A stretch of DNA of 64,000 bases, taken from Taxawa tesnikishii (nom. ined.) (Eukaryota; Ascomycota; Dothideomycetes; Dothideales). This document shows positions 1,905 to 59,208 of the stretch, one piece after another. The notes below the pieces were generated by a model. That model ran no database searches, had not been told where the DNA came from, and saw nothing but the letters and a program-made list of their open reading frames with translations. The first letter of the stretch is position 1, and each line of letters opens with the position of its first letter. Both the position numbers and the translations under genes were made by a program. Where the stretch lies: contig JAPDRO010000027.1 in the NCBI GenBank assembly GCA_030247885.1, forward strand, positions 372,001 to 436,000, read 5' to 3'.

Positions 1905-4619
1905 ATGTCTGTACGAGACACATACAGATTCATGGAGCTGGAGCAGCCGTCGGCCCCTGCTCCGGGCAGTTCAAAGAGGAAGAGGATGGTGGAACCAGAC
2001 GAATACCCTGCCCTTCCGGTTGACCCCGCCTCAATCGAAGATGCGCACACGCCAAAACGCAGTCGCCCTACGAACTGGCGGAACAGTGGAGGAGTCGCCT
2101 CTTCTGGCAACTCGCCAGCTGCCAAGCGCAATGTCTCTTCAGTTCGTCGCAAGCACGGTGCTTGGAGTCTATCGTCTCTCAGCAGACGGCATGCCAAGGC
2201 AGATACGGATAGGGAGTCCAAGTTCCAAGAAGGCAGCATGAACGACAAGCCTAGCGATCAGCCACCAAGTGTTTTCACACGATCTCCAAGTGGACACCTG
2301 ATGCAGGATGCTACCACGATCGACGCACTCATGGGCGCATACCTCGATGACGCGGAAACCGTTGGCAATGACGCTGCCTATAACGGTCTTGCAAGTCTGA
2401 GCTTGCAAGCCAATCAACAAGCGTTGGAAGGGGCAACGGACAACAAGAGAGGGTCAGGCATATACCGCTTTGGACGTATGATGGCTGCCTCTTTCAATCC
2501 CATCAACATGTGGGGTTCGTTTTCACAGACCTGGAAGGAGACCAAAGAAGACATGACCATCCGCAACATCGAGGAGAACAGGAGGAAGGCGGCACAAAAA
2601 GCCATGGCAGAGGCGAGATATGCCGAATTAAAGAAGGCCGGACAGCTTGGCCAGCAAGGTTCCTCGCCGCTCAAGCCTGGCATGAAGATCTACTCTGCAG
2701 GGTACCAAGAGTACGAGGATTCCGAAGATGCGAACACGGGCGAACCTAGAGACTCTGGCGTGGTCATGGTTGAAGAGGGATCGACTGCACTGGAAGTCAA
2801 GGGCCCATTCCCAGCTGATTTCATGCACCCACGGCCGGCCCCGGTGCCTTCCCGAGCGGAGACGCCATCTGTCACCGAATCGACGCTGAAGTCGAAGAGA
2901 TCCTTCTTCTCCATCAGGAAGCCATTCACAAGCCTGAAGAGGGTCACTTCAGACGTCAATCTGCATACACGCCAGTCGGCCTCTTCGCTGTCGCCCGAGA
3001 AGATCGAGAAGCCAGTTTTTGACGCCGGCACACTTCGTCGATCTCAGTCAAGAAGAGACCTCCACCGGCAAGAAAAGCTGAGCAAGCGCGTGAGCGACCT
3101 CGAGACTAAGTTGCAACAAGCACGCCGTGAGCTTCACTCAGCCATCGACAACCGTTCACCAAAACCCAACCTGCCTACACGCTTTGAGAAGTTTACGCCA
3201 GACAAGAAGCTCAATCGGCCAAAGTTCGTTCCCGGCAAACTCCCTTCACTGCCTTCTGAGCGCCTGCTGGGCGTCACGTCGCCAGAGCACGAATTCGACG
3301 AGGATCCGATCAACAATTTCTTTGCTCAGCAGACGCCATCTATCAGCAAGGCTTCACTAGGCAAGGGAGCCCTCATTGCTCAGAGCTTCACTCCGCTAGA
3401 ACAGGCACAACTGGCCGGTCTGTTTCCTCCGAGGACCTCGTTCAGGCAGGCCATTATTCCGGCAATCACTGTCCAGGACGAAGACGACGCTTTGGACGGC
3501 GCTGAGGAATTCTTTGACGAAGAGATCACGCAATTTGCAACCACGGAGACGTCAGCGGCCGCGTTACAGCCACAGGAGGTACAGGACGTACAGGAGGTAC
3601 AGGACGTGCAGGACGTGCAGGACGTACAGCAGGTAAGTGCTGGCAGACAAATCAATGGGTCGTCTGTTTGTGGGGTCTTCTATCCGTTAGATGCCCTGTT
3701 GAGGAGATTAGCGCATGCTCGTTCCCTTTGCAAAGGCCTTGCGCTGTGATAGTACCTTATGCTGACCCCCTCCAGGTATGCGAACAGGCCACTCAGCCTG
3801 CCGACTACGCCGAACTCGACGCCAAACTCAGAGAGGTCGATGCCAAAGTCAAGAAGACGACTAAAAGAAGGTAGTCAGGCCGAAAAAGCGCAAATCCGGC
3901 GCGTCGGATGATGCTGCCTTCAAGCCCGGACAGGAGGACGAAGACGACGACGGCGGGATCCAGGAGACGCCGAAAAGAAGCAGCGCAAGTCCGCCGGCAA
4001 AGCCCAGAACAGCTCGAGAACGGAGAATCAGACCACTGCTGCTACTGCTGCTGCTGCAGAGGGCACGAAGGACACGCGAGTCAATGCTCAGCAGACGGCC
4101 TCACAAGAACCCACCGTCACGCCCGAGATCGAAGCTGCTCCAGCGCACCAGCCAGCCGCGAACGGAATAGACGCCGGTACCGGTGCTGTCGATTCCGTCG
4201 CGAACCTCAGCAGCAACGACGTCGAAGAAAGCTCCATCCGCACGAGCCCGGACGGCCAAACCCAATCCCTCGAGCCCATATACGAGGAAGACAGCATGCT
4301 AGCCGCCTCGGGCGACGAGGAAGCCCCGACCACGCATACCGCCACCATGCTGGAGGTTCGAGAGACGCACTCGCGCTCCCGCTCGCCGGCCGGACGCGTG
4401 CGCGGCCGTAGCCGCGGCGGGACCCGCGACGTCGTTGTCGAGGTCACGCACCGGAGGGACGGTAGGGGTAGGGTTGTGGGCGGTAGGCTCGTCGTTGGCG
4501 GGGATGATGTCGTGACGGCGGTGCCGGGGACGGAGGGCGTGCCTGAGATGCCGACGGTGGGCGGTGGTGCTGTTGCGGCTAAGAAGGTCGATTGGGAGTG
4601 GCCCGAGGATGTCTTCTGA
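1905..4619 (+). CDS. Large basic, nuclear-type protein of unknown function; two apparent 1-base losses
   Basis: Starts at ATG 1905 (MSVRDTYRFMELEQ). Exon 1 runs to 3632, an intron with GTAAGT donor and CCAG acceptor covers 3633-3775 (phase 0), and coding resumes at 3776. The protein has NLS-like clusters (KRKR near the start, PKKRKSG near 3885), a predicted coiled coil (KLSKRVSDLETKLQQARREL, about residues 390-410), a RPKFVPGKLPSLPSERLL motif and an acidic C-terminal half ending in DWEWPEDVF. From memory, ascomycete orthologues are annotated only as putative nuclear RNA-binding proteins; no RNA-binding fold is visible. After 3866 the frame closes, but coding clearly continues in a second and then a third frame to TGA 4619. 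Each change is restored by one extra base, in the A run 3863-3866 and the G run 3955-3957. I read these as assembly errors. Confidence 0.7.
3573..3632 (+). repeat. Coding minisatellite, six 9-bp units (Gln-Glu/Asp-Val)
   Basis: CAGGAGGTA and CAGGACGTA/G units are repeated six times (3573-3626), followed by CAGCAG, which directly abuts the GTAAGT donor at 3633. It encodes an acidic Q-E/D-V repeat. Its position against the splice site means copy-number change would lengthen the exon in frame without touching the donor. Confidence 0.85.
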
Positions 4620-5791
4620 GTGGGTCCGTTTTGTCGATTATGTGTGAGAGAGAGGATGGAGAGGGAAGGGGAAGCGTCCACTTTTTTCTCTCTTTTTTTT
4701 GCACAGATTGGAAAAGTGCTGATGGTTTGACGATGATGATGATGGGTTTACGGCTTACTGCTTGATTTCCAGTGCTCTGGGACAGATTGGGGGTTTTTTT
4801 GTTTCGTTTTTCAGCAAGGAGCATAGGCGGGTTTTATTCTCATTTTCTCCTCATTTTCTCCTATAATGGGGGTTTCTCTTTTCTCTGCTTTCGGCCTCAG
4901 ATGCAATTGCATGGCGACGCGAAAAAGTCCTTTCGTATCATTACTCCCTCTTTGAGTGTCGGGTCTTCTAGGCTCAAGCGTCTGGGGCAGTTTTGAGTTT
5001 GTTCTTGAGAGCCGGTTGAAGGATTCTGGGTTACTGCTGTTACGAGGCGAACGAGTGCCACGTTCAGTCAGTTGCCTGACTACCGGTGACGTCTCTATGA
5101 GCAGACAACGCCTCACACGACGTTCTTCAGCTCTCACAGCTTGAGTGCACTTACACTTGCCCTCTGCCAAACATCTCAAGGACCTGGTTTAGAAGGTTTC
5201 GAGTATGTGTGGATAACCAGTCTGCCAGCTATGGAGTGAGGACGAGGTATCTTTGGCCGGCAACAGGGCAACGACCGTGATGGAGGCTTCAACTGACTGC
5301 TTGTCGTTCACAGCCACAAGCGGGTCCCCATCTTCGGATTGAGAAGCGGCATGCTGATGCAGTGTTGCCTGGCTCCATCCAACCCTGGTGACACCAGCTA
5401 CAAGCACAGCCTTCGCCCATGCGCATCTCCGCCTTGGGACGAACCCCTGCCGATCTGGCAACATAAAAGAGGCAACAATCTGCCTCAGGCAACGAGGCGG
5501 CCCCTTTCGCTGTACCCCGTTGCACTCCACCCATAATCTACGCGTCATTTCAAGGCAACCATGTCGCTCAACGAAACCGAAACGAGAGTGAATAATCACG
5601 CACTTGAGGGGGGAGGACGTGCTACTCATAGAGGGGAGGCCACGAGAAACCGAGCGTTCCTGGTGCCTGACACCTTTTTTCCTCCTTCACACAGTCCCAC
5701 ATCATCTTGCTACCCTCAAACGCTTGCCCGGTCTCCCGTTTCCAACATTTTCTTCGTCCAATATCACACAGCGGCACTGTCATCTTGCGCC
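4620..5791. other. Intergenic, 1.17 kb, no gene seen
   Basis: Contains T-rich tracts (4680-4700, 4795-4815) likely in the 3' UTR of the upstream gene, and a C/T-rich stretch before 5792. No coding segment could be supported. An in-frame ATG at 5561 could extend the next gene by 77 residues, but that extension looks non-conserved and low-complexity. Confidence 0.45.
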
Positions 5792-8058: not shown

Positions 8059-10133
8059 CTACTTCCTCTTCCTCGCACTCCCGCCCTTATCACCCTTGTG
8101 CACATTCACATTGACCTTGACCTCGGGCGGCTTAATATCCCTCCCTCCTTGACACTCGCATCCGCCTCCGGCGGCGCACTCAGCGGCTTATTCGCCGTCT
8201 TCTCCTCGAGTTCCTCATCATCACCGCCCTGCCCGAACTCGTTAACGCGCGAGTAGTCGACCTTGTACTTCCAAGCCTGGTACAAGTAGACGAAGAAGAT
8301 GACGTCGTCGCGCAGGGTGGCGAGGCGGTGGAGCGTGGGCATCTTGATGGTGAAGGCGAAGAGGTCGTCGATGAAGGTGTTTAGGAATTTGTACGTCATG
8401 GCTTTGGCGGGCATGTGCGCGACGGATTTGAGACGGTAGTTTATGTAAAGCGAGGGTACCATCATCAGGAAGCCGTAGGCGTAGACGGAGCCGACGAGGG
8501 TCGTGATGATGAACGAGTACCTGCAGGGCGTCAGTGGGGTTTGTGGTGAGGAGTGAGGGATAGATGAAATGAGAGTGAGGGATGCATGAGGAGACGATGC
8601 TTACCAGCTCTTGTGGGTTTCGTATAGGAGCGAGTAGACTGCGTACGCCAGCAACAGCGGCACGGCGATCATGTAGAGGTACTTGAAGGCGATGGCATCG
8701 TACTCTTCGGTCTTCTTTTCCGTTTCGGAGAGCTTGTGCTTGTCCTCGAACACAACGCGGTACGGGATCAGACTTCCCTGAGGCGCGGGGCGCACACGCA
8801 CATTCACTGTCTTGGTGATCTTCCACGCCTCGATGGCGATACCCATGCCTTGGCCGAACAGAATCATCCATGACGTGTTGTCGTTGTTGTCCATGAGATA
8901 GAGGAAGATGATGCTCTGCATGAACACGTTCGCCAGAATGGTGCGCACAGACGTACCCACGTTGTCCTTCTTCTTGCGCCAGTGGCTGACGTCGTTCTTG
9001 AATGCGAGCATCTCGAAGATCATATGCAAGATGCTGACAAAGCCAGTGACTCCGAGCAGGTAGATGTTGCTGTCTAGGAGTACCTCCTTGATCATCTCAA
9101 ACTCGCTGCCGTCGCCGCCACCGGGCGTGGTCTCTCCTGCGCGGCTTTGCGGGCAGTCTCTTTCATTCCCTCGTCCATGCTGGCCATGATGCTGAATTGC
9201 CAGTTGCCGGCGTTTTTCAGGTGGATGTTGAGTGGGAGCTCCTTTACCGTGGAGTTGAGCTCGACCATGTGCGACTTGAGCTGCCAGAAGGTGTTAAGGT
9301 ACATGATAGGGTAGTACCAGCCATTCTGTCCACTCTCGTCTCGCGCGCCAGTTGATTCCAACGGAACAAATTGGCGCACTGCTGGATGCAGTTGAGGGTA
9401 CTTTTGCACGCCAAAATTCGGGATGAAGGAGAGGGTGAAGTTAGGGTGGTAGTGGGAGGAGATGATGGGGCCCTTGTCTTCCGGTGTAATGTCTTCATCT
9501 TCAGTGGCATTGGCTGCGGACAACAAGTTGCGAGTCTTGTGGACCTTCTTCTTGGCGAGGTACTGAGTGAGGGGTCGAGAAACACGGTAGGCTTTGCTCA
9601 TGTCGTAGCCCGGAGCGGTGGGGTCCAGAACGCTGCCTGATTGAGCGATGTAGAAATGCGCCCATAGAGTTCCGTTTTCCTGCACAGCTCTTGGCACCTT
9701 GATGGTAGCATGAATGTCCCGTTTGTCGCTGTAGTTGCCCAATCTGAAAGCTTTCTCTTCCAAAACCAACGATTCGGCAGGCATAGACTTGTGCGATGGC
9801 ATGACGAAGGACGGAGATATGTACATGGTGAGATCCAGAGAGGTGTTTGCTGGCCATATTGGGTGGATTTCTTGGGGGATCTGGTTATATGTGGTGGGAA
9901 CATGCTGTGCAGCGCCTGGAGTGTATGATGGGGGCGGGGCATTGCTTGCTTGCTGTGGCTGAGGCATAAACTGCTTCATAGCGAAGTTGATGAGGAAGAA
10001 AATGCCTACAGCCTGGACGACGGAGCGAATAGTCTGCTGTACAGACTTCAGTATAACCGCGACCTTCCATGCTGTGTTCACAACGTACGCTCGCGCCAGA
10101 CTGCTGCTCCTGCTGTCGCTGTGGTTCCGGCAT
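8059..10133 (-). CDS. CLPTM1-family multi-pass membrane protein; two apparent 1-base losses
   Basis: Start ATG at 10133 (MPEPQRQQEQQ). Exon 1 ends at 10089, a 52-bp intron (GTACGT...TACAG) lies at 10088-10037, exon 2 runs 10036-8605 and exon 3 runs 8520-8059. The family is clear: an N-terminal span (AVGIFFLINFAMKQFMPQP), a large lumenal domain with NGTLWAHFY and NFTLSFI, and then the conserved core EMIKEVLLDSNIYLL, FKNDVSHWRKKKD, NTSWMILFGQG, IEAWKITKTV, TYKFLNTFIDDLFAFTIKMPT and DDVIFFVYLYQAWKYKVD. Family members sit in the ER or endomembranes; mammalian CLPTM1 retains GABA-A receptors and the relative CLPTM1L is a lipid scramblase. The frame breaks near 9130-9137, just before the GSEFEMIKEV core, and again at the C/G runs 8139-8145. 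One added base at each restores a Lys-rich tail (VKVNVNVHKGDKGG) ending at TAG 8059. Confidence 0.9.
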
Positions 10134-14606: not shown

Positions 14607-16743
14607 TTAAAGTAGACGGATACCAGGGAAATGCGCTGGCTCGTCCACAAGACACGGATCATCCCACGTCGTCTCTCCCGTGTCCTCATTGATAAAGTAG
14701 ACTCTTCGGCCCAACGGTACAGTGGTCTTGCCACCCCAGGCGCAACGTCCAGCGTGCCAGCCTTTCGGGCAAGGCCCTGTTCCTAGGTGGGGGAATCGGG
14801 GATCGTGTGTCGTCCTTATCCCTAAACCGCCGTGCTCGAAGATCTGCCTGCCTTGCTCCAGAGCACCTGGTGTCCAGCCGGGCGGTAAAGCAGTACTGGT
14901 GTCCTCTTGCGAATAGTCACCATCTGAGCATCGCTTCTTCCTGGAGCAGTCGGCAATATAGCTTGAGTAGCTTAAGTGTGGGTCGTTTTGATCGTCCATG
15001 ATCCCGTACGCATAGCATTCGCCGATCAGCTGGTGGAAGCCATCTTTCGGGCGCACGACGACTGGACGCCTGACCCCGGAAATCACGGTAATGTAGTCGG
15101 TCAGTTGGCACTGTGATGGCACGACGCAGAAACGGCCTGCTTCGGTGACGCCGAACCTTAACTCCCAGAAGACTCGCCTTCGGTCCAGCATGTTGACGAA
15201 CTTATGATAATGTGCAGTCTCATTCCGCTTGGCTACGGCCTCTTCGGAAAGCCAATCGAGTAACGAATGTAATGCACGACTTGCCTGCTGCTCATCGATT
15301 ATCTCAAGGCCTGAAACGTTGGGTTCGCGGGCGTGGAATGTGTGTAGCAGCGCCATGATCCGCTGATCGCCGTAGATGGTAGAGTTTGTAATAGCCTGGA
15401 CGCAAGAGTGTAAAAGTCTCAATACTTCTTGACAAGCACTCCGCGAATACCGAGTTTTCGACAAGGTCTCGCGGTCGCACATCTCACTGAGAAAGCAGAG
15501 TCTCTCAGATAGCGCCGCGGTCGTGATGTAGACATATCCACCTTCGCCCCGCCTCTGCACTCTACCGTCTCTTCCTTCCAATGCTGTCTCGGTGTAGCGT
15601 GGCGGGCGATGCGACGATGTCCAATCAGGAACCCACGAGGGAGGCCTCGCAAGTTCTGGAATTGCAGCCCTGCGTTCAGCTCGACGTTGCTAATGCCATC
15701 TTCCAACATTCTGATAACAACGTCAATGAATAGCTGCTGTGGCGAGCTCCGATAATCAGGTATCGGAAGATAGGCATCCATCTCTTTGGGATCAACCAAT
15801 CCTGTCAAGGTGTATATCTTATCATGTGGTCGTGCACACAAAGTCCTGAAACTGTTTCGAAGCAGATTGGATAGGGCCAGAGGCTTAGCATCTCCGAAGT
15901 GACCAAGCCGAATGCGTTGTATAACCATGACCTGATTGACCGCGTCCGCAACCTGTGGTTCAATGGGACGTCGATGGACAACAGTTGCGTGATAGAAGCA
16001 TGACCAGGCAAAGGCGAACAGTTCACTCCAGAGGCATGTCCGCGAACCGCAGGCAACGACAGTGTTAGTATTCGAGGCTGCTTCTTGTTGCACCCAGGCT
16101 CTTATGAACCATGGACGGAAGAAGAAGTTTTTGATAGCCTTTTGTTCAGCATCCCAGAAGGGCGAGACCTCCGGTAATCCGAAATGGGCTTTTGCAACGC
16201 CGTCTGTGGACGCCCGGGATGTGTCGAGGTGTCCCAACCAGGTAGCTGGAGCTGTACATGATTTGCGATTTCCGGATCGAGGCCTGCAATTATGTCCATG
16301 ATCGCATCGCTGTTGTCTGCAGCATCACCAAGCCAGATGACGACATTGTTAGCACGTGCGTAGATCTCTTTCATCTTTCTGACTTGACTGGCTTTTTCAT
16401 CCAGATTGTGCTGATGGATACAGACTGCATCAACCCATACGTTCCTGATAGTGTCTTCTTTGCGGAGGCTCAGAAGAGCAGCGTGAAGGTTTACGGTTAC
16501 TCTAATAACCTTCTCGTCGCACAGTATGTTCGTTTGGTTCCGAGGGTCACCCCAGGAGTAAGAGAGCGCTTCATAGCCCATGCCATCATCCGGAGCAACC
16601 TCCACGATTCGGCATCTAATTGGTTCTTCCTTCAGTCCGGGAAGCAGTTGGAGAACTCGGATATAGCGATAATCCTTGAGCGGTGCATATTGGAACTCCG
16701 GAGTCGGGCACTTTGCGCAAGTACTCAAATGCTGATTCCCCAT
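14607..16743 (-). CDS. HET-domain protein with C-terminal WW-like module; two apparent 1-base losses
   Basis: Start at 16743 (MGNQHLSTCAKC) is preferred because the CAKC...FQYAPL...IRVLQLLPG opening is typical; a longer start at 16854 exists. HET-domain landmarks are in order: YEALSYSWGDP, VTVNLHAALLSLR, VWVDAVCIHQHNLDEKASQV, MKEIYARANNVVIWLG, FFFRPWFIRAWVQQEAA, LCARPHDKIYTLTGLV and LPSWVPDW. The HET domain triggers allorecognition cell death in fungi. After about residue 580 come LPPGW and, 50-60 residues later, GRRVYFINEDTGETTWDDP, which resembles the second half of a WW domain, a Pro-peptide binder. The product would be about 710 residues. Two frame changes lie within conserved HET blocks, and each is restored by one base in a short homopolymer run, so the gene may well be intact in the organism. 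Confidence 0.8.
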
Positions 16744-17210
16744 AGCACAAGGCTTTCGGAGATTTCCTTGGGGTCTGACGACCGCAGTATCGCTGCACCG
16801 CGCGACAAAACAGCGTCGCAAGCAAGCAAAGTCAGGGTACTGGATGATAAACAAGGTTAGAGGGTCTCGAAGCGGAGGGGAGAACGGAGATCAAATTAGC
16901 GCAATAAATTGGCCCCCACTATGTTAGCGAACGCCAAGTGTTTGATGTGTATATTGGTGCCCAATAGGAAATCTCCTACCCATTTGTGGTAGGTAGAGTC
17001 ATGGGCTAGTAGGCTTGTCGTGCCTCAGACGAAGATCTGCCTCGGTGTCTCGTCTGTTGCAGAACTGCTCTCTTCCACCAGCAATCAGAACAGCCCGGGT
17101 GAAGTGTGAGTGAAGCTGACACATCGCTCCAATGAATCCATAGTAAGGCTGACGTGAAGTCCAGCTGTTGTCTTTCCGGGTTTCCGTAGAATAGGATAAG
17201 AGTAGGCAGT
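16744..17210. other. Spacer between HET and PEX39-like genes
   Basis: This 467 bp lies upstream of the HET gene (same strand) and downstream of the PEX39-like gene. The long-start variant of the HET gene would use 16744-16854. Nothing else is seen. Confidence 0.4.
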
Positions 17211-17791
17211 CTAGGTTGCCCAGCTGGGAGTAGGAGCAGGGGTAGCATCCTTCTCCCAAGGCTTCTTTCGTCTGGACGCATTGCTTTGCGTCCCTTGGCC
17301 TTCAAGGACTGTGTCTGGAATGTCTTTGATGCCTGGTATGGACTTTCCTCGGCGATCATTTCGCAGATCTGAGCGAAACTTGCTGGCGCTGGAGCATTTC
17401 CGCAAGCGGAGGAGGCATCTTCAGTGGCAACAGCTGGTGGTTCTGGCTGTGTATTCGTTTCCGCCTCAAATTGGGGATTGTTCCCAGGTTGGACACCAGC
17501 CTTATCGCGCAGCCATGCTTTGTAGCTGTTGAAGTCTACTGGTGTTCCATGCTTTCTGCAGAGCGTTAGTGGATTCTTTGACGAGTTTATAAGAAAGACT
17601 GGCAGTCACCTGGCGAAATAGTAGCATTTGGCGCGTGTAGTCAGATGAGCAACCTGTTCTGGGGAAGACGCTGGACCTAGTATAGCTCTCAGTCCTGCTT
17701 GAAACTCTTGATCCTCATCCCAAGGATAGCTGTCAAGCTGTCTGAACAGGTTGGTAGGGTCACCACCGTCGCTGATTGCTTGCGTGGCCAT
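17211..17791 (-). CDS. Small KPWE-motif protein, PEX39-like (DUF5572 type)
   Basis: Start ATG 17791 (MATQAISDGGDPTNLF). Exon 1 is 17791-17610, a 54-bp intron follows (17609-17556, GTGACT...CTGCAG), and exon 2 runs to TAG 17211. The N-terminal half is YPWDEDQEFQAGLRAILG and FARKHGTPVDFNSYKAWLR. After an acidic Pro/Ala linker comes FAQICEMIAE, then GKSIPGIKDIPDTVLEGQG and RRKKPWEKD. The PGI..IP....EG.G....KPWE block is the hallmark of the KPWE domain. As I recall, this defines the peroxin Pex39 (yeast Yjr012c, human C6orf226), which helps Pex7 import PTS2 cargo and shares the [R/K]PWE motif with Pex13. The frame shifts between MIAE and GKSI at 17347-17348; one extra base restores it. The product is about 175 residues. 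Confidence 0.7.
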
Positions 17792-21969: not shown

Positions 21970-24266
21970 TCAGAAGTCCCGATCCCGATCCCGAGCCATC
22001 GAACCAGCCGAAGGGCTCGGAGCCTCCGTCACACGCGGACTAGTATGACCAGAGTGCTGCGAATACTGCGTCCGCGCCGACTGCTGCCTACCCAGAAAAT
22101 CCTTCTCACTCGCTTCATAGACGTTCACTGGACTTCGCACGCTCGGCATCTCGGTCGGCATCGGCGGGGGCAAGTGCGGCTGGATCTGCAGCGGTGGAGG
22201 ATAATAGAGTTGCTGAGGGGTGGATAGTAGGGTTGAGGATGTGACGATGTACGGCCGAGTTCGTGCAGACTCCTGTTGTCGGGCCATGGGGTGTTGGTGT
22301 CTGCGCGGGATGACCAGCCTGGTGATGTTTGCAGTGGGTAGCCGGCATCAAGTTCTTGACCGGTGGGGCTCAGAACTGGTTTGTGAACGTTGCTGTAGTG
22401 GGAGCGGGGTGAGGATGGGTCGGGGTTCGGAAGCTCGGCCATTGTCTGTGAGGGATAGCCCTGTCCTTTTCGACCTGCTGCAGCCCGCTGCGCTTTATTC
22501 TTACTCCGCCGGCGGAGACAGAAGATGAGTACGCCGACGGCGACAAGGGCGACGACTCCGCCGACCGTGCCCCCTGCAATTGCTCCCACATTGGTGTGCG
22601 ATTCAGATGACGTATGATTGGATGATGTTCCGTTGGTAACCAACACTGGAATGGCACGTGTAGGAGTCCGTGTTGCTGCGGCATAGACTCGAGTGAAATA
22701 AACCGAAAGATCGTTGGAGTTCCAGCCCTGTGTAGGGGTGGTGAGAGTCGCCCCGCCAGTTGCCCTGAACGATGGTCAATAGATTGTCCATCAGCGCCGT
22801 CGCAAGGACACATACCCGCCGCCCACGGCTTTGGTAATTTCCGGCGGAACCTGATAGCTCGTGACGTTGGGCAAGAAATAGTACCACATGGCGTCTTCTT
22901 CATTCTGCTTTCCAAGGTTGAGGTTGTGCATGCCGTAGTTGACTTGGGCATCGCATTGAGTTGAGGAAGCGTTCGGAAAGGTTCCTCCCATAATAATCAT
23001 TTGGGAGTTGTCGATAACATTGCAGGTCAGGGAGTGATGAGGGTATGTCTGATTTGTTGACCACCACTGACCATCATGAGCAGGACTCCTGAGCAAGTAC
23101 AAGATAAATACATACCTTGATCCACGTGAAAGACGGCATCGACAGAATGTATACGTCATCGTAGCCAACTGAATTGTTGTTTGGCATTCCAAGACCGCCA
23201 TAGAGATATCTGCATATGATAAGCATCGTCGGCTTGGGAAGCGGTGGGAGACTGACACATTGTATGAAGAATGGTCTTGAGCCCAAGTAACACCGGCACA
23301 GAACCTGCGGCGCATTCCCGGGATATCACCTGTAGCCGTTTGCGTGTACCATCTGTCATTGGCAATGTCGTAGAGGTGGATTTCCTATTGGAGTCAGTGG
23401 CAAGGACCTCGATCGACATACAGCACCACGAACACTCATAGGTACCTATCAGCCGTTAGCGATTGTTTCACGTGAAGACAACAACGCCACCTACGCCTGT
23501 AAAGCTTCCGTTTCCTGACCCAGAAGATGTCTCAACACCGCCGAAATATACCAGCATGCCTCCATCGGATGCAGGAATGTAGACCATGACACCTTCTGCT
23601 CTACCGGTGTTGTCCGGTCCGGTGATGTTTGTCCACCTGTTCTGGATCATATCATAGCTCAGCAGGTAAGAAGAGGCGATTGGTGGTCCAGCCCAGTTCG
23701 GGATTGTCGCGTTGCTCATCCAGCCCCCATAGTAGTATCCGACACCTCTGTCGTTGACAGCAACGCCAGCACCGTAGGAGGACGGAGATATATCAGACGT
23801 ATCCGATACTGTTTGGTTCCACTGGTTGTAAATCGCATCATAGGCCCAAAGGGAGAATGGTTGTGCCGATGAGGTAGATTCACCGCCGTACAGGTAGAGG
23901 ACCTTGTTGACAGTGTCCGCCCAGAGGATTCCGCCTGAGAGGGATGGCACTTGTGAACCTTTTGTCAGGTTGTCGTACTCCTGTGGCATATGCTGGTTGT
24001 CGACATCCAAATTCGCATATAGAAGGTACGTATCTAGACAGAGTTAGATGGTCGAAGAAGTTATCGAGGAAGGTCTTCTAACTGGTGTAGTTGGTTGGGT
24101 TTTGTTGATAGTTGATTTGGCCTCCATCGATGAAGAGCCTTCGGTCTATAACAGCTGTCTGTTGTCCGAAGCGACGGCAGAAGTCCGCCAACGGATCATA
24201 CTGTGCGAACGATAGCTGTACGAGTAGAGCTGCAACAGCGAGGCGACAGAGCCTTGTGAGAGCCAT
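21970..24266 (-). CDS. Kelch beta-propeller type I membrane protein; one apparent 1-base loss
   Basis: Start ATG 24266; a signal peptide MALTRLCRLAVAALLVQLSFAQ is followed by the mature DPLADFCRRFGQQTAVID. Exon 1 ends at 24083; a 49-bp intron, exon 2 from 24033, and further short introns follow, one pair flanking a 12-nt micro-exon (23434-23445). Kelch blades include KVLYLYGGESTS, GVGYYYGGWMS, MLVYFGGVETS, EIHLYDIANDRWY, VYLYGGLGMPNNN and MIIMGGTFPN, with many N-glycosylation sequons. A single membrane span (GTVGGVVALVAVGVLIFCL) with a stop-transfer RRRSKNK precedes a Pro/Ser-rich cytosolic tail ending in RDRDRDF. Such proteins are common fungal surface proteins of unknown function. In the tail the frame changes at the G/C run 22288-22291, restored by one base. 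Confidence 0.8.
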
Positions 24267-27729: not shown

Positions 27730-29725
27730 TTACAGCCTAGCCCTTGATTTTCGACCGCCTGCCGGATGCCATTTCTGCACGGTCCCAAGAGAACCATGAT
27801 CAGGAGGGAAAAGCTGAGGACCGAGCAACTTCTTCGACACCTTTCCGGTTGCTGTTTTTGGTATTTCTCCTTCGAGTATCGTGAGCAGAGTCGGCATTTT
27901 GTACCTCGCTAGCCGGTCGGAAAGATCTTCCCTCAACTTCTCGATATCCAGACTCGACGTCACTGGTTGCAATCTGTGGTCCCGTCCGTCGTGGGTTGGA
28001 GGGAGGACGTTGGATCTCAACACAACGGCTGCCGCGACCCGCTGCCCGAATTCCTCATCGGGTACGCCTACAACTGTGACCTCGGATATATACGGCAGTC
28101 CCAATATCTCCCGCTCGATGTCTAGAGCCGATATCTTATATCCGCCGGATTTGATGACTGCGATCCGTTAGCAGTGTGGGGAGATGAACACTGGCGCTAC
28201 GCACTATCGACAGAGGCGCGGCCCAAGATCCAGTAGTAATTGCCCTCCCGGCGTGCTATATCGCCAGATCTGTAATATCCTTCCTCGTCGTGCGCTTTAC
28301 GGGTTGCCTCATCGTCGTACATATACCTGGACCCTGTCAGTTACCTGCTCTTCTGGCATACACAAGAAATACAACTTGGAAAACATGTATGGACTCCTTA
28401 TCAAGACTTCGCCTTCATCACCTTCGGAGAGCTTGATGTCGATTCCGGCTGGAACCTCGCCCACTGAACCCTGCTAGCGGTCAGCATACACTTGAGTCTT
28501 GCATCGAATACCACAGTACCTCGGGGACGTGGTCATCGTCCATGCGAACTTTGAACACCGCCCCGAACTCCGTTGCTCCGTATCTCAAGAGTATCTTTTT
28601 CCCCATGACACCCTGCCAAAAATCCGCGATCGGCTTCGGCAGCGCGCTCGTTCCGCACCAAGACGCTCTGAACTGCCTTGCCGCAGCGACATACTCTGCC
28701 GTGTCCTTCCCGCCTTCGAGAGTATGCTGGTAATACCGCATCATCCGCATATAGATGGTCGGCACGCCGGAAAATATCGTCAAACCTCCCTGCGCCAGCG
28801 TTCCCAGGTCCAGCCGGGATCGAAGCTGCCGCTTCGAAACTCGATGCAAGCGCCGGCTACCAGCAAGGGGAAGAACATCATGCCCACACCGGTTGCATGG
28901 TGCACGGGGAGAAGATGTAAGAGCACGTCGCTCTCAGATATGTGGTAGTGGTCCGCGACTGACAAGGCGAAGTCGTGAACGAATGCACGCGGCATCACAG
29001 ATCCTTTCGGTGGGCCGGTGGTGCCTGGAAACGTTGATTAGCCATTACACGCAACCACGAGTTTGCCAAATTCGTACCGCTCGTGAAGATGACAACACCT
29101 GGAGCATTTTCGTCCAGATATCTGTCAGATGAGACCATGATATCAGCCGCTCGCACGACCGGGGTGAAGGTGGAAGGCGCGATTGGCAAACAACAGAACG
29201 TGCTCGTGGGATCCCCGCTTTGATCAGTTTCTCTAGCTCTACGCCCTGGCTCATTGCAGATGACGAAGCTAGCACAGCAATCGATCGCGACTTTCTTGCG
29301 TAGTACAAAGCCTCCTTCGGCGGCAACGCCACAGCTGCGCTCGTCAGCTTCTTCATAGGCAATCCTCCATCACGATATATCTGGAACTTACTCATGGGCA
29401 CGCATGCCCCGCCGAAAGCCAGAACCGCAAGCATAGCCACGGCATACTCGTATCCGCCTGCTGCGAGGATCGCGATATAAACAGGTTCGCCTCCAGCTAG
29501 GATCTTCTGGGTGCTTGTACGGAGATCATGGCGGAGCCTGTTCCGCAAGGCCAGGACATCTGTCAGGAGTTGCAGGTATGTTGCTTCCGCATGAGCGATG
29601 TCGTCGCGTACGGCTAGCCTTGGAGGTCGGTTGTGAGCGAAGCGTAGTAGTCTGCTGAAGAAGGGGGATCGTGGTAAGACGTAAGGGCCGTCGTGGGCGG
29701 GGACGTATTTTGTGCGGTCGTCCAT
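27730..29725 (-). CDS. Peroxisomal acyl-CoA synthetase, ACSF3/malonyl-CoA-synthetase-like; two apparent 1-base losses
   Basis: Start ATG 29725 (MDDRTKYVPAHDGPYVLPRSP). Adenylate-forming landmarks: IAILAAGGYEYAVAMLAVLAFGGACVPMS, VVIFTSGTTGPPKGSVMPRA (P-loop, formed across an intron), HLLPVHHATGVGMMFFPLL, IFSGVPTIYMRMM, LLRYGATEFGAVFKV, EGYYRSGDIARREGNYYWIL, GRASVDIIKSGGYKIS (hinge), VVGVPDEEFGQ and IPKTATGKVSKK with the catalytic Lys. It ends in -ARL, which fits the PTS1 consensus [SAC]-[KRH]-L. Four introns were inferred. Two frame changes, near 29185-29190 and at 28788-28790, are restored by one base each. The closest family is ACSF3-like malonyl/methylmalonyl-CoA synthetase; the acyl substrate cannot be read from sequence. 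Its divergent partner is acyl-CoA oxidase, which supports a role in peroxisomal acyl activation. Confidence 0.82.
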
Positions 29726-32826: not shown

Positions 32827-35015
32827 ATGGCCGGCCACCCACTTCTAATCGCGGCAGTGTTCGCTTCCGCGCTGTTCGTCATCTACAACGTCTTCTTTGG
32901 TAAAAATTCCCCACAGCGGAAAGGCGCTCGGGTGCCGCCAGGACCACCGGGCAAACCTCTCATCGGGAATCTATTGGATATACCGCCATCGCACTCATGG
33001 CTGAAGTTCAAAGAGTGGGCGGACGAGTAAGTGACAATACTTTGAATGGATTCAGCATGCCAGCATTCCCAAAAGGCCTTCTGCTGAACATGCGCTTGTC
33101 CGATCGCCTTGCCCTCCTACACTGATATCTCTACGCGTCCACTCGCATAGAATTCCGTACAACACCTTCCTTACTACAGACTCCCAACCCGTCTGACCCT
33201 TGCGGTACCATAACGCTCTCCTACACCAAGATACAACGATCATTGTTGCGCTAATGCTCTGACTTCTCTAACACTTTCTGACGCAGGTACGGCCCGCTCT
33301 TCCGGCTCAACATCGCAGGACGCGAACACTACGTCGTGAGCACGGAAAAAGTAGCGAATGATCTGTTGAGGGAGAGGGAAATCTGTACTCGAGCCGCGAG
33401 CAGACTCCAGCGGCGGCAAAGCTTCTAGGAGGGGATTTGAGGCCGCTATTCTTGCCGTATAACGGTATGTGCAATTGCCCCCGGAGGACGCGAACGCGTG
33501 TATGCGACTGGGCGCGCGAGACGATGCTGGGTTAGATGCGATTGGCCGCGGGTGGGGAGGGGTTGGGAGAGCTTCTGCAGAGCCACGTACAATCTTGCCG
33601 GATGGCGGTCGAGATGCTTGCGATGAGGTGTTGATGGATGTCGCGCTCGCATACGCCTGCCGCGCGAAAAAAGAAATGACCAGAGGTCGCCGGAGCTTCT
33701 AACCCTTGTAACCCTGGGGCCACACGCACTGTATGCGATACTGACTCCCGCTTGCTAGACACCTGGCGCAAAGGCAGGAAGCTAATGCACCAGCTCACAA
33801 TGCCATCGGCTGCGACATCGTACCAACCGACGCAGATCCTCGAGTCCACACGCCTTTTGCACGATCTCCTGCACTCCCTAAGGACTACGAGCAGTGGTTT
33901 GAGCGCTACTCGTCCGGGCTCATTTTCCGCCTCGGGTTCGGGAAAACGATCAAGAACGAGGGCGTTGTGAGGCGCATTATGGATGTGAACCATAACCTCG
34001 AGAAGGTAGCGAGCCCGGGTGCATATCTGGTCGATACGTTTCCGAGCATGATGTATGTACCTGAATTCTTGGCGCCGTGGAAGAGGCAGTTGGGCGAGTT
34101 CCATAAGGAGGAATTGGGGCTGTTTAGGGAGTTGTTGCAGGACGTAAGGGAAGAGATGGAGAAGGGAACGGCGCCGCCGTGCTGGGAGCGCACGTTCATT
34201 GAAGGGCAGGAGCAGTGGGGTTTGAGTACCGATCACGGCGCCTATGTCATCGGAACGTTGTTCGAGGCTGGCAGTGGCACGACAAGCGCGGCTATGTGCT
34301 CCTTCCTCCTCGCTATGGTGCTTCATCCGACCTGGCTGGCGAGACTGCACGACGAGGTGGATCGTGTCGTGGGACCGGACCGGATGCCGGAATTCGAAGA
34401 CATGCCGAATCTGCCTACGTGCCGCGCTGTTATCAAGGAGGTCCTGCGCTGGCACCCCGTCACCGCGGGCGGGCTCCCACACCAACTTATAAAAGACGAC
34501 GTGTACGAGAACTACTTCATCCCCGCAGGCACGAACATCCATCCGAATCAGTGGGCAATCCACAGAGAGCCGGAGCTGTATCCCGATCCCGAAGCGTTCA
34601 ACCCGGAAAGGTGGCTGGATCCGAAATTCCCAACGTACAAGGAACCACTGAGCGTGTATCCTAACCTGCAGAACTTCAGCGCTTTCGGCTTCGGGAGACG
34701 CATCTGTCCGGGCCAGAACATCGCGGAGCGCAGCTTGAACATCCTCACGGCGAGGATCGCATGGGGATGCGATATTCGGAAAGCGAAGGGTGAGGATGGC
34801 GCAGAGGTCGAGGTGCCGTTGTACGACTATGAAGTAAGTGATCTGATTCATAAGGAGGTGCGGGGATGGAGGTTGCTGACGAGAGTACAGCATGGTTTCA
34901 ATACGAAACCGAAGTGGTTTCCTTTGAGCTGAAGCCGCGGAGCGAGGAGAAGACGAAGATCGTGAGGACAGCGCTGGATGAGCTGACTAGAAATGATCCG
35001 TTGGCCGGGCGCTAG
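32827..35015 (+). CDS. Cytochrome P450, microsomal type (CYP64/OrdA-like); three apparent 1-base losses
   Basis: Start ATG 32827 (MAGHPLLIAAVFASALFVIY, membrane anchor), then the Pro-rich hinge PPGPPGKPLIGNL. Exons: 32827-33026, 33287-33464, 33759-34833 and 34891-35015; the first two introns (260 and 294 bp) are long for this window. Landmarks: YGPLFRLNIAGREHYVVS, TWRKGRKLMHQL (C helix), FEAGSGTTSAA (I helix; the usual AG[ST]DTT is AGSGTT), IKEVLRWHPV (K helix ExxR region), NPERWLDP and the heme loop FGFGRRICPGQ with its Cys ligand. The frame breaks at runs 33376-33378 (G), 33876-33878 (C) and 34923-34925 (T). Each is restored by one base, giving the tail FPFELKPRSEEKTKIV and TAG 35015. Substrate unknown; the relatives I recall act in polyketide and aromatic oxidation. 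Confidence 0.85.
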
Positions 35016-41368: not shown

Positions 41369-41662
41369 TCAGTGACCCGTGAGCTCCTGCTTCTTCTTAA
41401 CGAGGAAGCGGAACGGACTCCCCTGCAGATCCTCGCGCACGATCTCCGCACCCAGACCCCTGGAGAAAAGCCTCGCTGTAACGGGTGAGCTTCACGAATG
41501 GTAGTGCGGTAGGGTCCAGGCTCAGGTTCGTACCTCGCTTGTCGTATGTAGATGTCACGTTCATCTCGTTCCGGCCTACTGCGTTGATGAAGAGGCCGAT
41601 GAAGGGGACTGTCAGAAGTGTGACGCCGAGGGGCGGCTGAAGAATGCACGGACGGCAGACAT
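41369..41662 (-). CDS. Small single-span membrane protein, unknown function; one apparent 1-base loss
   Basis: Start ATG 41662 (MSAVRAFFSRP), then a hydrophobic segment GVTLLTVPFIGLFINAV, RNEMNVTSTYDKR, a 58-bp intron (41533-41476, GTACGA...TTACAG) and ARLFSRGLGAEIVRED, ending LVKKKQELTGH and TGA 41369. That gives about 78 residues with one membrane span and a basic tail. The frame needs one more base in the G/C run 41630-41633, between FSRP and LGVTLL. The size, single span and compact exon structure suggest a small organelle-membrane protein, but I do not recognise the family. Confidence 0.6.
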
Positions 41663-45505: not shown

Positions 45506-47962
45506 CTACAACTTAGCCTTCGGACTCTGACTGGCCTCTGCCTCGGCATACATCTCATCGAGCAAGTGACGGTACTTCTTCGCCGTTTGAGGTCTCTTGA
45601 GTTTTAGCCTGTTCTCAGCGTCAGCGCATCAGATCCCACACTCAGTAGCACTTCCCTCGATCCAGACCGCCATTCCAGCGCCAGTTGCGATCCTAAACTT
45701 GGGATTCGGAGAAGGGTGATAACCACTTACGTCGGCGTCAACAACTCATTCTCAATCGTGAACGGCTCCACCAACAACCTTGTACTCTTAACCCTCTCAT
45801 AAGAGTTGAATTTTGCTTTCTTGCCCACTCTTTCCAACTCCTTCAATACCGCTTTGCGGACCTTGGCCTCCTGCGCCGCCGCCTCGAGCGCCTTGATGTC
45901 CTTGTCGTCCACCTCCTTGCCCAACACCTTCCCACAGAACGCGGCGAACGCATCCGGCTGAATCCCAAAGATCGACACGAGGTGTGACTGGTGCGAGTCT
46001 CCGTGCACATACGCCTGCGCCAGCCAGTTCAACTGTCCCAGGTACACGTTCTCGATCCTCTCCGGAGACACATACTCGCCCTGCGCCAACTTGAGCACGT
46101 TCTTCCTGCGATCGATGATCTTGAACCGTCCCATCTCATCCACGCTACAGATGTCACCGGTACGGAACCAGCCATCCTCGGTAATGCTCTTCTTCGTCTC
46201 CTCCTCGTTCTTGAAATACTCCCTGAACCGATTCGCGCCCCGGATTAACAGCTCGCCGCGCGGGTGCGGCTTGTCCGTGCTCAGATACTCCATGTCCGGC
46301 ACGTCCATGAGACAGACCTCGTTACTCGGGGCCACCGCACCACAGTTCCCAGCGCTGAAATCGCCTTCCAACTGCGCGACGGAGCAGGCGTACGTCTCCG
46401 TCAGTCCGTACCCTTGCACGAACGTATTCGCGAACACAACGCGCAAGAATTGCTGCAGACTCGGATCGATAGGCGCGGATCCGCTGACCATCGCTCTTAC
46501 GCGCTCCAGCCCGAACGCAGCCGTGACCTTGCGCCCCCAGATCCGGTCCCACAGCGCATGCTTGTTCGTCGCCTTCCCGGCGTCGGCGTTCTGGAGTGCG
46601 GCCATCTTGCTCGACACAATGTGCCGGGACAGCGCACCCCTCACGCCGCTCTGCTGCACGGTGGCCGCCTTGATCGCTCCTCCAAACCGATTGTACAGCC
46701 GCGGAACGGAGATGAAAGAGGTGGGCCGCAGCAGTTTGAGGTCCTCGGTTAGGGCGGCGATGTCGCCGTGGAAGTAGCCAATCGAGGTCCCGGCCCAGAG
46801 CGCCGTGTGCTCCGTCACGCGCTCGTAGATGTGCGCGAGCGGGAGGTAGGAGCACATGACGTCGCCCGCGCGCTGCTGCATGAGTGTCAGAGACGACGAG
46901 GCGGCGGCGACGGCGTTGGCGTGCGTCAGCACCACGCCCTTGGGCGCTCCCGTCGTGCCTGACGTGTAGTTTATCGTGATGATATCCTCGGGCCGTGGCG
47001 CGTGATGTGGCTTGGGGCTCTTCTCACCCAGGGCCTCAACATCGTTGATATGATAGATGCTCACGCCCACGTCCGAGGCAAGCGCGTTGAGGATATCCGC
47101 CTTGGACGTGCCCGGCAGCTCGCCCCCGTCGTCAGCGGGTCCATACTCACGATAATCTTGAGCGTCGGACACCTGGGCGCCAATTTCAAGAGCGTCGGGA
47201 TATGTGCTAGGCTCGTACACACCGCGGCCAGACCGGCATGGTTGATGATATACTCGGTCGTGTCCGGCCCCAGCGTGTCGTAGATCGACACCGAGAAAAG
47301 TGACTGCGACATGCATCCCAAATCTACAATCTGCCACTCCGGCCGGTTTTGGCACCACAGCCCTACGCCGTACTGAGAGCCCGTGATGGAGAGGTTTTGG
47401 TGCAAGGAAACGAGCCCGATCCCAAAGTTTGTCCGTCGCGCTGCCACTTCCGCGTACGTCTCCCAAATGTAGGGTCCCCAGGTCTTGGTCGCGGGGTCGT
47501 AGGGCCGATGGCCTAGGCATCGTGCACCTGGGACGCGTTTGACTGTCGTGATCGTCAGCCAATGTTCTACCATCTTACTGTCCTGCCCCATATCGAACAG
47601 TTATGCAGACATACCGGTATCCTCGAAGATCTCGTGCGCCGTACCAATCTACATAAACAAGTGTTAGCCTCCGCAGCGCCTCGAACCAACCATCCACCAG
47701 CAGCGCAGAGTGCGCTAGTTGCATTGCAATTGCACGCGCGAGCCCAGGCGCACAGTAGAGGCGTGCACGGAAGTCGTACGCAAAGGAATATCCCATCTCA
47801 CCTTCGGATCAAGCGTCTCCAATATTCCATCCGCAAACCTCCAGTGTCTGTATATCTTACTTCTGCCAGACTGTTCGCTGCCGTCTACGGCGACGCTGTA
47901 GGGAGTGCCGGGGGTGGGGGTGCTTGCAATTCTGTTGCACGATCTAAAGCTAGGGAGGACAT
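45506..47962 (-). CDS. Long-chain fatty-acyl-CoA synthetase, peroxisomal (PTS1); two apparent 1-base losses
   Basis: Exons: 47962-47802, a 34-bp exon 47648-47615, 47542-45731 and 45608-45506. It begins MSSLALDRATELQAPPPP, then GTPYSVAVDG and SKIYRHWRFADGILETLDPK. Landmarks: FEDTVKRVPGARCLGHRPYD, GLWCQNRPEWQIVDLGCMSQ, ITINYTSGTTGAPKGVVLTH (P-loop), SYLPLAHIYERV, YGLTETYACSVAQ and the FACS box WFRTGDICSVDEMGRFKIIDRRKNV (first part). It ends LKLKRPQTAKKYRHLLDEMY...AKL, a PTS1 tripeptide. It activates long-chain fatty acids to CoA esters; with PTS1 it probably feeds peroxisomal beta-oxidation, like A. nidulans FaaB. The frame needs one base at the G/C run 47910-47914 and one at 47137-47139 (between SMDP and DDGGELPG). 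Confidence 0.93.
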
Positions 47963-49154: not shown

Positions 49155-50504
49155 TCACTCCTTCCCCGATTCCTTAACGCGGACCGCCGGGTCACGTCCC
49201 CTTCGCCACGCCTCATCGCGAAGCTGATTCAGCTCCTCCCTCTCCCGCTCAATCGTTTCCACCAACCATTCCTTCCGCCCCGGCTTTAAACGCTCCAGTT
49301 CCGCCTCTTCCCCGGCATCTTGTTTCCTTTCCCATTCCCCTTCTCCTTCCCCTGCGCCCACCACCCCTTCTTCCTCTCCTTCGCCTGCCCACCCAGCTCC
49401 TCGTCAGCCAATCGTTCCAATTGCTCGGTCCTGCGTAACTCATACTCCCGCTCCCTAACCCTCCACCTCTTCTCAAACCACCCCTCGAACTCCATCTCTC
49501 CGCCAAAACAGATCCCGTACCCGGAACAGTAGCAGCCCCGCATACTCGGACAGTCCACCGTTCTTCCAGTGAACAAATAATGCCAGAGATACTCCCACAC
49601 CCGCCCACTCAAATAATCACTCAACTCCGTTCTTAGCAACCAGTCCCGGAAATAAACGTACCGGGCCAAGGGAATCGCCTGGATGCGCTCCCGACTCAAT
49701 GCGAACTGCCCGCAGCAGGGTTGAGACAGGATCTTCGGCACCGGGTCCAGGGGAAAGAGTTCCTTGAACGCGGCCGCCATGAGCGGTTCCTCCGCCTTAT
49801 CCAGCGCAACCCTCCCCATCTCGGAAGTGCGCGACCCGGACACAGTGTCAGGCACAGCGGGATCGAGCGGGTGTAACCAATCGGGACACCCGGGATCCCA
49901 AGCGCAGCGCAAATTGAAGTAGCCCCGCCGCACCACGTGCGAGGGATCCAGATCTAAGAGCATCCATGCCGCGTCGTTGTTTTGGAGTTCGTTGTTGTGC
50001 CAAGCGAAGCGGTGCGCGTGCATGAAGATGGAGATGTCGGCAAGGTTGGGATAATGATCGATGATATATGTCAAATATACCATGACTTCATGTCCTTTAT
50101 TCTTCTTTACTTCCAACCCTAACCCTTCTCCCCTTTTTTGATCTACAACGTACTCCGCTACCTCCATGTTTCCCTCGGGGGTATGAGCGAGCCTAGATAG
50201 GAGCGGATCCATGTCGTGTTCTCAGCCCGAGTGCGCGCGATCACCAGCGTGCGGGTATAATTCTCCCCTGGCGGCTTTGGCGTCCCGGGCGGGAACAATG
50301 ACTTCTGGTGCAGATCTGGTGTTGGCCGGTTGTTCCTAAGATCAGGCAAGATGTGTTCACCCGAAGCTATTTCCTGCGCGCTGGGACCTTTGGGGAGCGC
50401 CATTGTGTGGGAATGAAGTGAATTTTAGCGGAGCGTTGAAAGCTCACAATGAGCACAGTGATGAGGATTGCGGTTACAAGAATTAGGCGCCGTCGAATGA
50501 ACAT
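49155..50504 (-). CDS. DUF3431 type II membrane protein; three apparent 1-base losses
   Basis: The start at ATG 50504 gives a signal-anchor MFIRRRLILVTAILITVLIV, typical of Golgi-type enzymes. The DUF3431 core follows: YTRTLVIARTRAENTTW, VAEYVVDQK, NKGHEVMVYLTYIIDHYPNL, ISIFMHAHRFAWHNN, YFNLRCAWDPGCPDW, SQPCCGQFALSRERI and RVWEYLWHYLFTGRTVDCPS, with conserved Cys pairs. A long charged C-terminal helix (QLERLADEELGGQAKERKKG; then EEAELERLKPGRKEW) ends at TGA 49155. The family is fungal and uncharacterised; its HAHR motif and short CxxG-like loops suggest a glycosyltransferase-like fold, which is inference. The frame is broken at runs 50392-50395, 50177-50181 and 49310-49313, each restored by one base. 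The N-terminal anchor and C-terminal helix are lost if the frame at face value is used. Confidence 0.78.
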
Positions 50505-55069: not shown

Positions 55070-55598
55070 GCAGAGCGATTTCATGAAGAGTGAAAAAGTC
55101 CGGTGCTTTAGACACTATGAAGATATTATGCGTTGTTCAGTTGATATCATCAAAATTGAATGAACAGGCATTTCTTTGAGGGGAGGAGCGGGGCTTTGCC
55201 TTTCCACATCTCCGATGCATGAAGCAAGCCACTGACGGTGCCTGAACTTCTGAACAGCACATCCCCTCACATATCACACCTGCACCCCGCAAACTCAATG
55301 CGGTCCTTGCCGTTCAGCCCCAGGCACACGACGATGCAGTCAAGATCAGATTGCAAGTTCACGTCATCCGACAGCGCGCCTCTGCGACCAAGAAGAGGCG
55401 CAATGCAGATGAGATCATTGCCAACGGAGAGATTGAGCAAGCAGTACGCGTCTCCCTCGGCCGATTCCTCAGTGGAGGTATAAATGCACAATGCGCCTGT
55501 GATGACGGATTTGCATTTGCTCAAGACTCCCGTCGATCTGAATAGCAAAAGCGAGTGTTGACCTGGGCTTCCACTTTCGGTTTTCGGTACTGGACATC
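55070..55598. other. Spacer, 0.53 kb, no gene called
   Basis: A minus-strand ORF at 55548-55267 (94 codons, ending EFAGCRCDM) looks moderately protein-like but matches no family I know. The rest is the presumed promoter of the next gene. Confidence 0.35.
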
Positions 55599-56204
55599 AT
55601 GAAGCTCTTTTCCTTCTCCTTCGCCGCCGGCTTGGTGGCTGCAACAGCGGCGCAGATGGTTAACCGCACAGCGACGAATGGCTGGGGCTCGACGCCCTCG
55701 CAGCGCCACTACATCAACGCTACTCAGGCCATGACGGTCATCAACGCTGCGATTCAATACTCGAGGTCCTCTGCTTCCTGTGCCCCTTGCCTTCGTGAAG
55801 TCGTCTGACTCTCATTCCAGCGTTCCGAACGACATCGCCGTCCTCGATCCCTCCTCCCAACTCGTCGCTTTCTTGCGTATGGACAACGCATTTCTCGGCT
55901 CGGTCGACATCAGCATCAAAAAGCGCGCACAGTAACCTACTTCAACGGCTTGTTCCCCTCCTACGGGTTGCAAAATCGTTCCCAGCCCGGTGGCGATGTA
56001 TTCGGTATCGAGCAGACCAACGGTGGACTTGTCGTTTTTGGCGGTGGACAGCCGATCTATGACGCTGAGGGCTACTTCATCGGTGCGGTTGGTATCAGTG
56101 GAGGGTCGGTGGAGCAAGACGTCGAGACCAGTGTCAAGGCCGCGCAGAGTATTGGGACCACGTTGGTCGATTATGTGTACCCCGAGGGTGGGGTTGTGCA
56201 GTGA
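55599..56204 (+). CDS. Secreted GlcG/HbpS-like (DUF336, heme-degrading-like) protein; one apparent 1-base loss
   Basis: A signal peptide MKLFSFSFAAGLVAATAAQ precedes the mature chain. Exon 1 is 55599-55765; a 55-bp intron has a weak donor GTCCTC, branch CTGACTC and acceptor CCAG (55820); exon 2 is 55821-56204. The Haem_degrading/GlcG fold is seen as NATQAMTVINAAIQYS, NDIAVLDPSSQLVAFLRMD, SVDISIKKARTVTYFNG, GIEQTNGGLVVFGGGQPIYD and YFIGAVGISGGSVEQDV. Family members bind heme or cobalamin-like ligands, and bacterial HbpS is secreted; fungal roles are unknown. The frame needs one A in the run 55918-55922. It is the only live-looking gene between two relics. Confidence 0.8.
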
Positions 56205-59143: not shown

Positions 59144-59208
59144 TTCTCGTATTCAAAATCGGTGGGGAATTCCGGGAATTTTGTTAGCTTGCCCCACCAA
59201 AGTTGCCC
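59144..59208 (+). repeat. Left terminal inverted repeat
   Basis: 65 bp, 62 of 65 identical to the complement of 62720-62784. It has normal base composition with CA and TG present, unlike the RIP-mutated interior. Confidence 0.9.

What the first reader, a model, noticed from the sequence alone, without database searches (positions are those of the whole stretch)
1905..56204. One-sided pattern of single-base losses in homopolymer runs across many conserved genes
In about twenty places a clearly conserved protein changes frame, and every one is restored by adding exactly one base, almost always in a run of 2-5 identical bases. Sites: 3863-3866, 3955-3957, 8139-8145, 9130-9137, 17347-17348, 19832-19836, 22288-22291, 28788-28790, 29185-29190, 33376-33378, 33876-33878, 34923-34925, 41630-41633, 47137-47139, 47910-47914, 49310-49313, 50177-50181, 50392-50395, 55918-55922, plus two in the HET-WW gene. 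I found no site needing a base removed. Housekeeping genes (Lsm14, CLPTM1, acyl-CoA synthetase) are hit, so sequencing under-calls are the likeliest cause. A mismatch-repair-deficient lineage or +1 recoding are less likely readings.
Basis: partly seen in the sequence, partly recalled or inferred. Interest (0 to 1): 0.8.

Follow-up and report, generated by a model that had tools for sequence, protein, structure and literature searches.

The report
Sequencing under-calls mimic broken genes
Many genes in this fungal genome look broken by one missing letter, but the pattern fits base-calling errors in runs of identical letters in the assembly, so it is most likely ordinary and not new biology.

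Summary
Six breaks (four in the window, two elsewhere in the assembly) are bridged by Pfam profiles with no room for an intron, and all six run one base short, five of them by exactly one base. A codon-model decoder with equal penalties finds 44 losses and 12 gains in the window plus twenty 10-kb samples from twenty contigs; synthetic genes show its sensitivity is symmetric. In the genome samples losses sit in homopolymers and gains do not. One-sidedness is not absolute (probable opposite site near 41467), and at several listed sites an intron is not excluded. The pattern hits CLPTM1, an RNA-polymerase second-largest subunit and an Hsp70-family gene. Mismatch-repair genes are present; 17 of 19 listed sites lack a slippery heptamer. 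Two contigs with the same mitochondrial stretch differ by single bases, one inside a tRNA. Best explanation: uncorrected homopolymer under-calling in a long-read assembly, as printed for nanopore yeast assemblies. No reads were available; the platform is inferred.

The parts
3863..3957 (+). two frame breaks, loss direction, in an unidentified conserved-looking gene (about 1905-4619)
   Evidence: reading; decoder losses at 3866 and 3967, 12.1 nats; no Pfam match for the first part. The first decoder run read an intron here instead
8139..8145 (-). frame break, loss direction, near the C-terminus of the CLPTM1 gene
   Evidence: reading; decoder loss at 8144, 6.2 nats; local test does not favour it because the gene ends there
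9130..9137 (-). frame break, loss direction, inside CLPTM1
   Evidence: Pfam 2-272 in one frame, 272-434 in the next; 14-nt gap, no room for an intron; 12.8 nats
15584..16261 (-). two frame changes in the HET-WW gene; introns not excluded
   Evidence: HET 1-110 then weakly 120-146 (E 0.13), 56 extra nt; local test favours loss at both but decoder reads an intron at 15584-15636
17347..17348 (-). frame break, loss direction, inside a KPWE-domain (PEX14-like) gene
   Evidence: Pfam 1-14 (E 0.048) and 17-48 (E 1.6e-14) in two frames; one base short of whole codons
19832..19836 (+). frame change, loss direction, inside the FDF domain of an Lsm14-type gene
   Evidence: Pfam 2-37 and 34-101; 47 extra nt, so intron not excluded by profile; decoder prefers loss by 7.6 nats
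22288..22291 (-). possible frame break in a Kelch-like gene; intron not excluded
   Evidence: reading; local test favours loss only by 2 nats; decoder reads an intron at 22180-22252
28788..29190 (-). two frame breaks, loss direction, in an AMP-binding-family gene
   Evidence: Pfam 173-245 and 249-336 across 28788, one base short of whole codons; 29185 by reading and local test
33376..34925 (+). three frame breaks, loss direction, in a cytochrome P450 gene with ordinary introns
   Evidence: readings; local test favours loss at all three; main piece is P450 140-428; four short pieces gave no Pfam match
41630..41633 (-). frame break, loss direction by reading, near the start of a short gene
   Evidence: reading; local test does not favour it
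41460..41468 (-). probable frame break in the opposite (gain) direction
   Evidence: decoder gain at 41467, 3.8 nats, reading; ambiguous in the local test; no Pfam match
47137..47914 (-). two frame changes, loss direction, in a long-chain-acyl-CoA-synthetase-like AMP-binding gene
   Evidence: Pfam 9-136 and 151-384, 41 extra nt so intron not excluded; local test favours loss at 47137 by 2 nats and fails at 47910
49310..50395 (-). three frame breaks, loss direction, in a DUF3431 gene (49310 in a non-conserved tail)
   Evidence: DUF3431 20-218; local test favours loss at all three; the upstream piece gave no Pfam match
55918..55922 (+). frame break, loss direction, in an HbpS-like gene
   Evidence: Pfam 21-53 and 54-127 in two frames, exactly one base short

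Best explanation
The window belongs to a contiguous fungal assembly (29.37 Mb, 34 contigs) whose consensus was not fully corrected. Homopolymer runs were recorded one base short, more often the longer the run, and where such a run lies in an exon the frame appears broken. Shown: the direction, the spread over contigs, the homopolymer association in the genome samples, hits on housekeeping genes, single-base differences between duplicate organelle contigs. Inferred: that the true DNA has the longer runs, and that the reads were noisy long reads (most likely nanopore) without accurate short-read polishing. A minority of the listed sites may be short introns.
For: Six intron-proof profile-bridged breaks, 6 of 6 in the loss direction, five of exactly one base. 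Decoder 44 losses to 12 gains at equal penalties (binomial p 2e-5), 31:7 at 4 nats or more, 14:2 at 6 or more. Synthetic calibration: 28 of 30 losses and 30 of 30 gains recovered, no cross-calls, 1 false gain in 30 undamaged. Genome-sample losses lie in longer runs (0 of 5000 rotations, n 31), gains do not (3635 and 1416 of 5000, n 10). C26 and C28 hold the same mitochondrial stretch yet differ by single bases, one inside a tRNA-Met T-loop, 73 against 72 nt. Published nanopore yeast assemblies show the same loss excess (PMC5466710, passages).
Against: No reads or platform record seen. Gains are not absent (12 decoder calls; probable site near 41467). G/C preference (13 of 16 pure-run sites) is not significant, p 0.12. 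Runs of 14 C and 15 A survive in the window. 5S rRNA copies show almost no length change: 44 of 47 are 120 nt, though they hold few runs of four or more. The duplicate mitochondrial contigs also differ by clustered mismatches (24 and 17), so mixing of related molecules could contribute. In another fungus nanopore polishing left more insertions than deletions (PMC7500977, passages).
Confidence: 0.93

Rival explanations
1. A mutator lineage lacking mismatch repair has really lost these bases, and the genes are broken in the living fungus.
For: Losses concentrate in homopolymers; repair-poor yeasts exist (PMC6528967, passages).
Against: MutS_V matches at six places and DNA_mis_repair at three. 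An RNA-polymerase second-largest subunit and other housekeeping genes are hit. Coding signal continues past the breaks. In the repair-poor yeasts the homopolymer change was mainly substitutions.
Confidence: 0.02
2. The shorter runs are real and full proteins are made by ribosomal -1 shifting or by slippage of the RNA polymerase at short homopolymers.
For: Coding signal continues in the next frame in many genes, and losses lie at runs. Two of 19 listed sites have an XXXYYY heptamer within 9 nt, against 77 of 4000 random coding positions, a rise expected because the sites were chosen at runs.
Against: 17 of 19 listed sites lack such a heptamer; runs of A, C, G and T and mixed sequence are all involved; a tRNA gene copy shows the same kind of loss.
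Confidence: 0.015
3. The frame changes are ordinary short introns misread as base losses.
For: Introns of 53-56 nt explain other split matches in this genome (Hsp70 and MutS genes), and extra sequence of 41-56 nt lies at three listed sites (FDF, AMP-binding 47137, HET). The decoder chose introns at or beside two more places.
Against: Six bridged breaks leave no room for an intron, and the local codon test prefers a loss at 15 of 19 listed sites. Likely true for some listed sites, not for the pattern.
Confidence: 0.03

Closest known systems
Residual deletions in nanopore-only yeast assemblies (PMC5466710; passages seen)
   Same: Excess of deletions over insertions (128,050 to 7,735 before and 17,445 to 7,707 after nanopore-only polishing), often in homopolymers, breaking many genes
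   Different: There shown against a reference genome and known reads; here inferred from reading frames, platform unknown
Drechmeria coniospora nanopore assemblies (PMC7500977; passages seen)
   Same: Filamentous fungus, homopolymer errors and frame changes in conserved genes, about one fifth of test genes wrong after long-read polishing
   Different: After polishing insertions exceeded deletions there; here losses prevail
Repair-poor Hanseniaspora lineage (PMC6528967; passages seen)
   Same: Homopolymer instability
   Different: There DNA-repair genes were lost and substitutions dominated; here MutS and MutL families are present

Membership tests
Homopolymer under-calling in a long-read assembly | Single-base length errors with losses in excess | tested here: met
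   44 losses to 12 gains; five bridged breaks of exactly one base
Homopolymer under-calling in a long-read assembly | Association with homopolymer runs | tested here: met
   genome samples 0 of 5000 rotations; window sites alone not significant
Homopolymer under-calling in a long-read assembly | Spread over the assembly regardless of gene function | tested here: met
   losses in 15 of 20 sampled contigs; polymerase and Hsp70-family genes hit
Homopolymer under-calling in a long-read assembly | Also in untranslated sequence | tested here: inconclusive
   one mitochondrial tRNA copy is a base short; 5S copies stable but with few long runs
Homopolymer under-calling in a long-read assembly | Accurate reads show the longer run | not testable with these tools
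   no reads held
Mismatch-repair-deficient mutator | Loss of mismatch-repair genes | tested here: not met
   MutS_V at six places, DNA_mis_repair at three; whether each is functional was not tested
Programmed -1 ribosomal frameshifting | Slippery heptamer at the site | tested here: not met
   2 of 19 listed sites have one within 9 nt, frame ignored
Programmed -1 ribosomal frameshifting | Same shift conserved in relatives | not tested
   no related fungal genomes held; the assembly has no relatives here

The most novel reading that the evidence does not exclude
The fungus really carries one-base-short genes genome-wide and makes full proteins by slippage at ordinary short homopolymers, a recoding of unprecedented breadth.
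Probability: 0.015. Interest if true: 0.95.

Novelty: not a real feature. Interest (0 to 1): 0.08.

Why it matters
It warns that gene models, pseudogene counts and missing-gene claims drawn from this assembly are unreliable until it is checked with accurate reads. If the shorter runs were real, it would overturn ideas on recoding, but nothing seen here requires that.

Tried and rejected
Decoder settings. The first codon model over-used introns and found 2 losses and 1 gain in the window. After retraining and allowing introns to 400 nt, losses exceeded gains at each of three penalties (window 9:1, 8:1, 6:1; rest 35:11, 31:10, 18:7). The decoder misses many listed sites: of its 9 window losses, 7 lie within 15 nt of a listed site, one (47225) is about 86 nt away and one (52581) is unlisted and probably spurious.

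Homopolymer spectrum. Coding G/C runs fall from 63 of length 5 to 1 of length 6 in 121 kb, but codon constraint could cause this and non-coding runs show no clear cliff, so it is not used as proof.

Untranslated RNA. The SSU rRNA search gave no answer and 5.8S rRNA gave no match with 39 of 883 candidates scored. All 47 listed 5S copies were fetched: 44 are 120 nt, one 119, one 122, one 99. They have few runs of four or more, so the test does not discriminate. The tRNA list was not used to count losses in nuclear genes.

Family searches. The sugar-transporter search scored 9 of 323 candidates, the best ones, so it gives no breakage rate. only repeated. Other split Hsp70 and MutS matches have 50-56 extra nt (one pair 410) and are taken as introns, not counted.

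A paper search by assembly size and contig number found nothing, so the organism stays unidentified. A structure-library search with the P450 piece only confirmed the family.
Full report
What the window is. It is a stretch of an assembly of 29.37 Mb in 34 contigs, C20:372001-436000, without N, with spliced genes such as CLPTM1, HET, AMP-binding and P450. That it is a fungus is my reading of the gene set.

Is the pattern there? Three-frame readings show the protein continuing in the frame expected after a one-base loss at the listed sites. The strongest evidence is where a Pfam profile runs from one frame into the next. I recomputed the spacing. Four window breaks leave no room for an intron: CLPTM1 2-272|272-434, the KPWE domain 1-14|17-48 and HbpS-like 21-53|54-127, and AMP-binding 173-245|249-336. 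Two more lie elsewhere: an RNA-polymerase second-largest subunit on C7, 1-330|326-373, and an Hsp70-family gene on C3, 29-265|265-420, both read. All six run in the loss direction; five are short by exactly one base and CLPTM1 has 17 extra nt, again one short of whole codons.

At FDF 2-37|34-101, AMP-binding 9-136|151-384 and HET 1-110|120-146, weak at E 0.13, the spacing leaves 47, 41 and 56 extra nt, the size of short introns seen in this genome's Hsp70 and MutS genes (50-56 nt). FDF is still favoured as a loss by the decoder, 7.6 nats; AMP-binding 47137 and HET are open. The decoder read introns at the second HET place and beside 22288. Four short P450 pieces and one DUF3431 piece gave no profile match, so those sites rest on reading and codon statistics. 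In the local codon test a loss was best at 15 of 19 listed sites and at both HET places; 3955, 8139, 41630 and 47910 failed. The 671 control positions show no leaning.

Is it one-sided? Mostly. With equal penalties the decoder gives 44 losses and 12 gains over the window and twenty 10-kb samples from twenty contigs, p 2e-5; the excess holds at stricter thresholds (31:7, 14:2). Losses occur in 15 of 20 samples and gains in 8 of 20 (counted). Synthetic genes show equal sensitivity.

Where do the losses fall? In the genome samples, 31 losses (of 35 outside the window; those with at least 2 nats and more than 110 nt from an end) lie in longer homopolymers than chance (0 of 5000 rotations); 10 of 11 gains do not (3635 and 1416 of 5000). 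The 17 window places tested show only a tendency (597 and 507 of 5000). This rise depends on those placements.

Could it be biology? MutS_V matches lie at six places and DNA_mis_repair matches at three. Two of 19 listed sites have an XXXYYY heptamer within 9 nt, against 77 of 4000 random coding positions, a rise expected for sites chosen at runs; 17 have none. Reading through a loss needs a -1 shift, so '+1 recoding' has the wrong sign (inference).

Direct signs of consensus errors. C26 and C28 carry the same mitochondrial stretch, 99.5% alike over 5 kb (rRNA and tRNAs on C26). My alignment shows 5 gaps, four of them internal, and 24 mismatches. One gap shortens a tRNA-Met from 73 to 72 nt within the T-loop (my reading). 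The two arms of C25 differ by 7 gaps and 17 mismatches. The mismatches are clustered, so mixing of related molecules is also possible; this is support, not proof. The 5S rRNA copies are length-stable, 44 of 47 at 120 nt, but hold few runs of four or more.

Comparison with print. In PMC5466710 (passages) a nanopore yeast assembly had 17,445 deletions and 7,707 insertions after nanopore-only polishing, with 2,590 of 6,273 genes free of indels. In PMC7500977 (passages) about one fifth of test genes stayed wrong after long-read polishing in a filamentous fungus, but insertions prevailed there. PMC6528967 (passages) describes repair-poor yeasts whose homopolymer changes were mainly substitutions.

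Verdict. The pattern is real as a property of this assembly, and homopolymer under-calling is the best explanation; a minority of listed sites may be introns. The platform is inferred. Runs of 14 C and 15 A in the window show that not every long run is shortened.

Noticed in passing
window 53573-55100 (+): A cytochrome-b5 and flavin-reductase (nitrate-reductase-like, my reading) remnant with a frame change and several in-frame stops by substitution; a genuine pseudogene candidate, unlike the other sites.
   Followed up: partly
window 58001-62000: An AT-rich island, GC 0.37 and 0.25 in two 2-kb windows against about 0.54 around it; perhaps a decayed repeat.
   Followed up: no
G000 contigs C26 (L022), C28 (L023), C25 (L024, L025): C26 and C28 hold near-identical mitochondrial stretches; C25 (80 kb) holds inverted duplicate arms and is about 90% like C26 over 1.7 kb, as if two related mitochondrial genomes or a chimeric assembly were present.
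   Followed up: partly
whole assembly G000: No 5.8S rRNA match was reported (39 of 883 candidates scored), so the rDNA repeat may be absent from the assembly; 5S rRNA is dispersed, at least 47 places.
   Followed up: no
window about 7577 and 13534: Runs of 15 A and 14 C survive between genes, so long runs are not always shortened.
   Followed up: no
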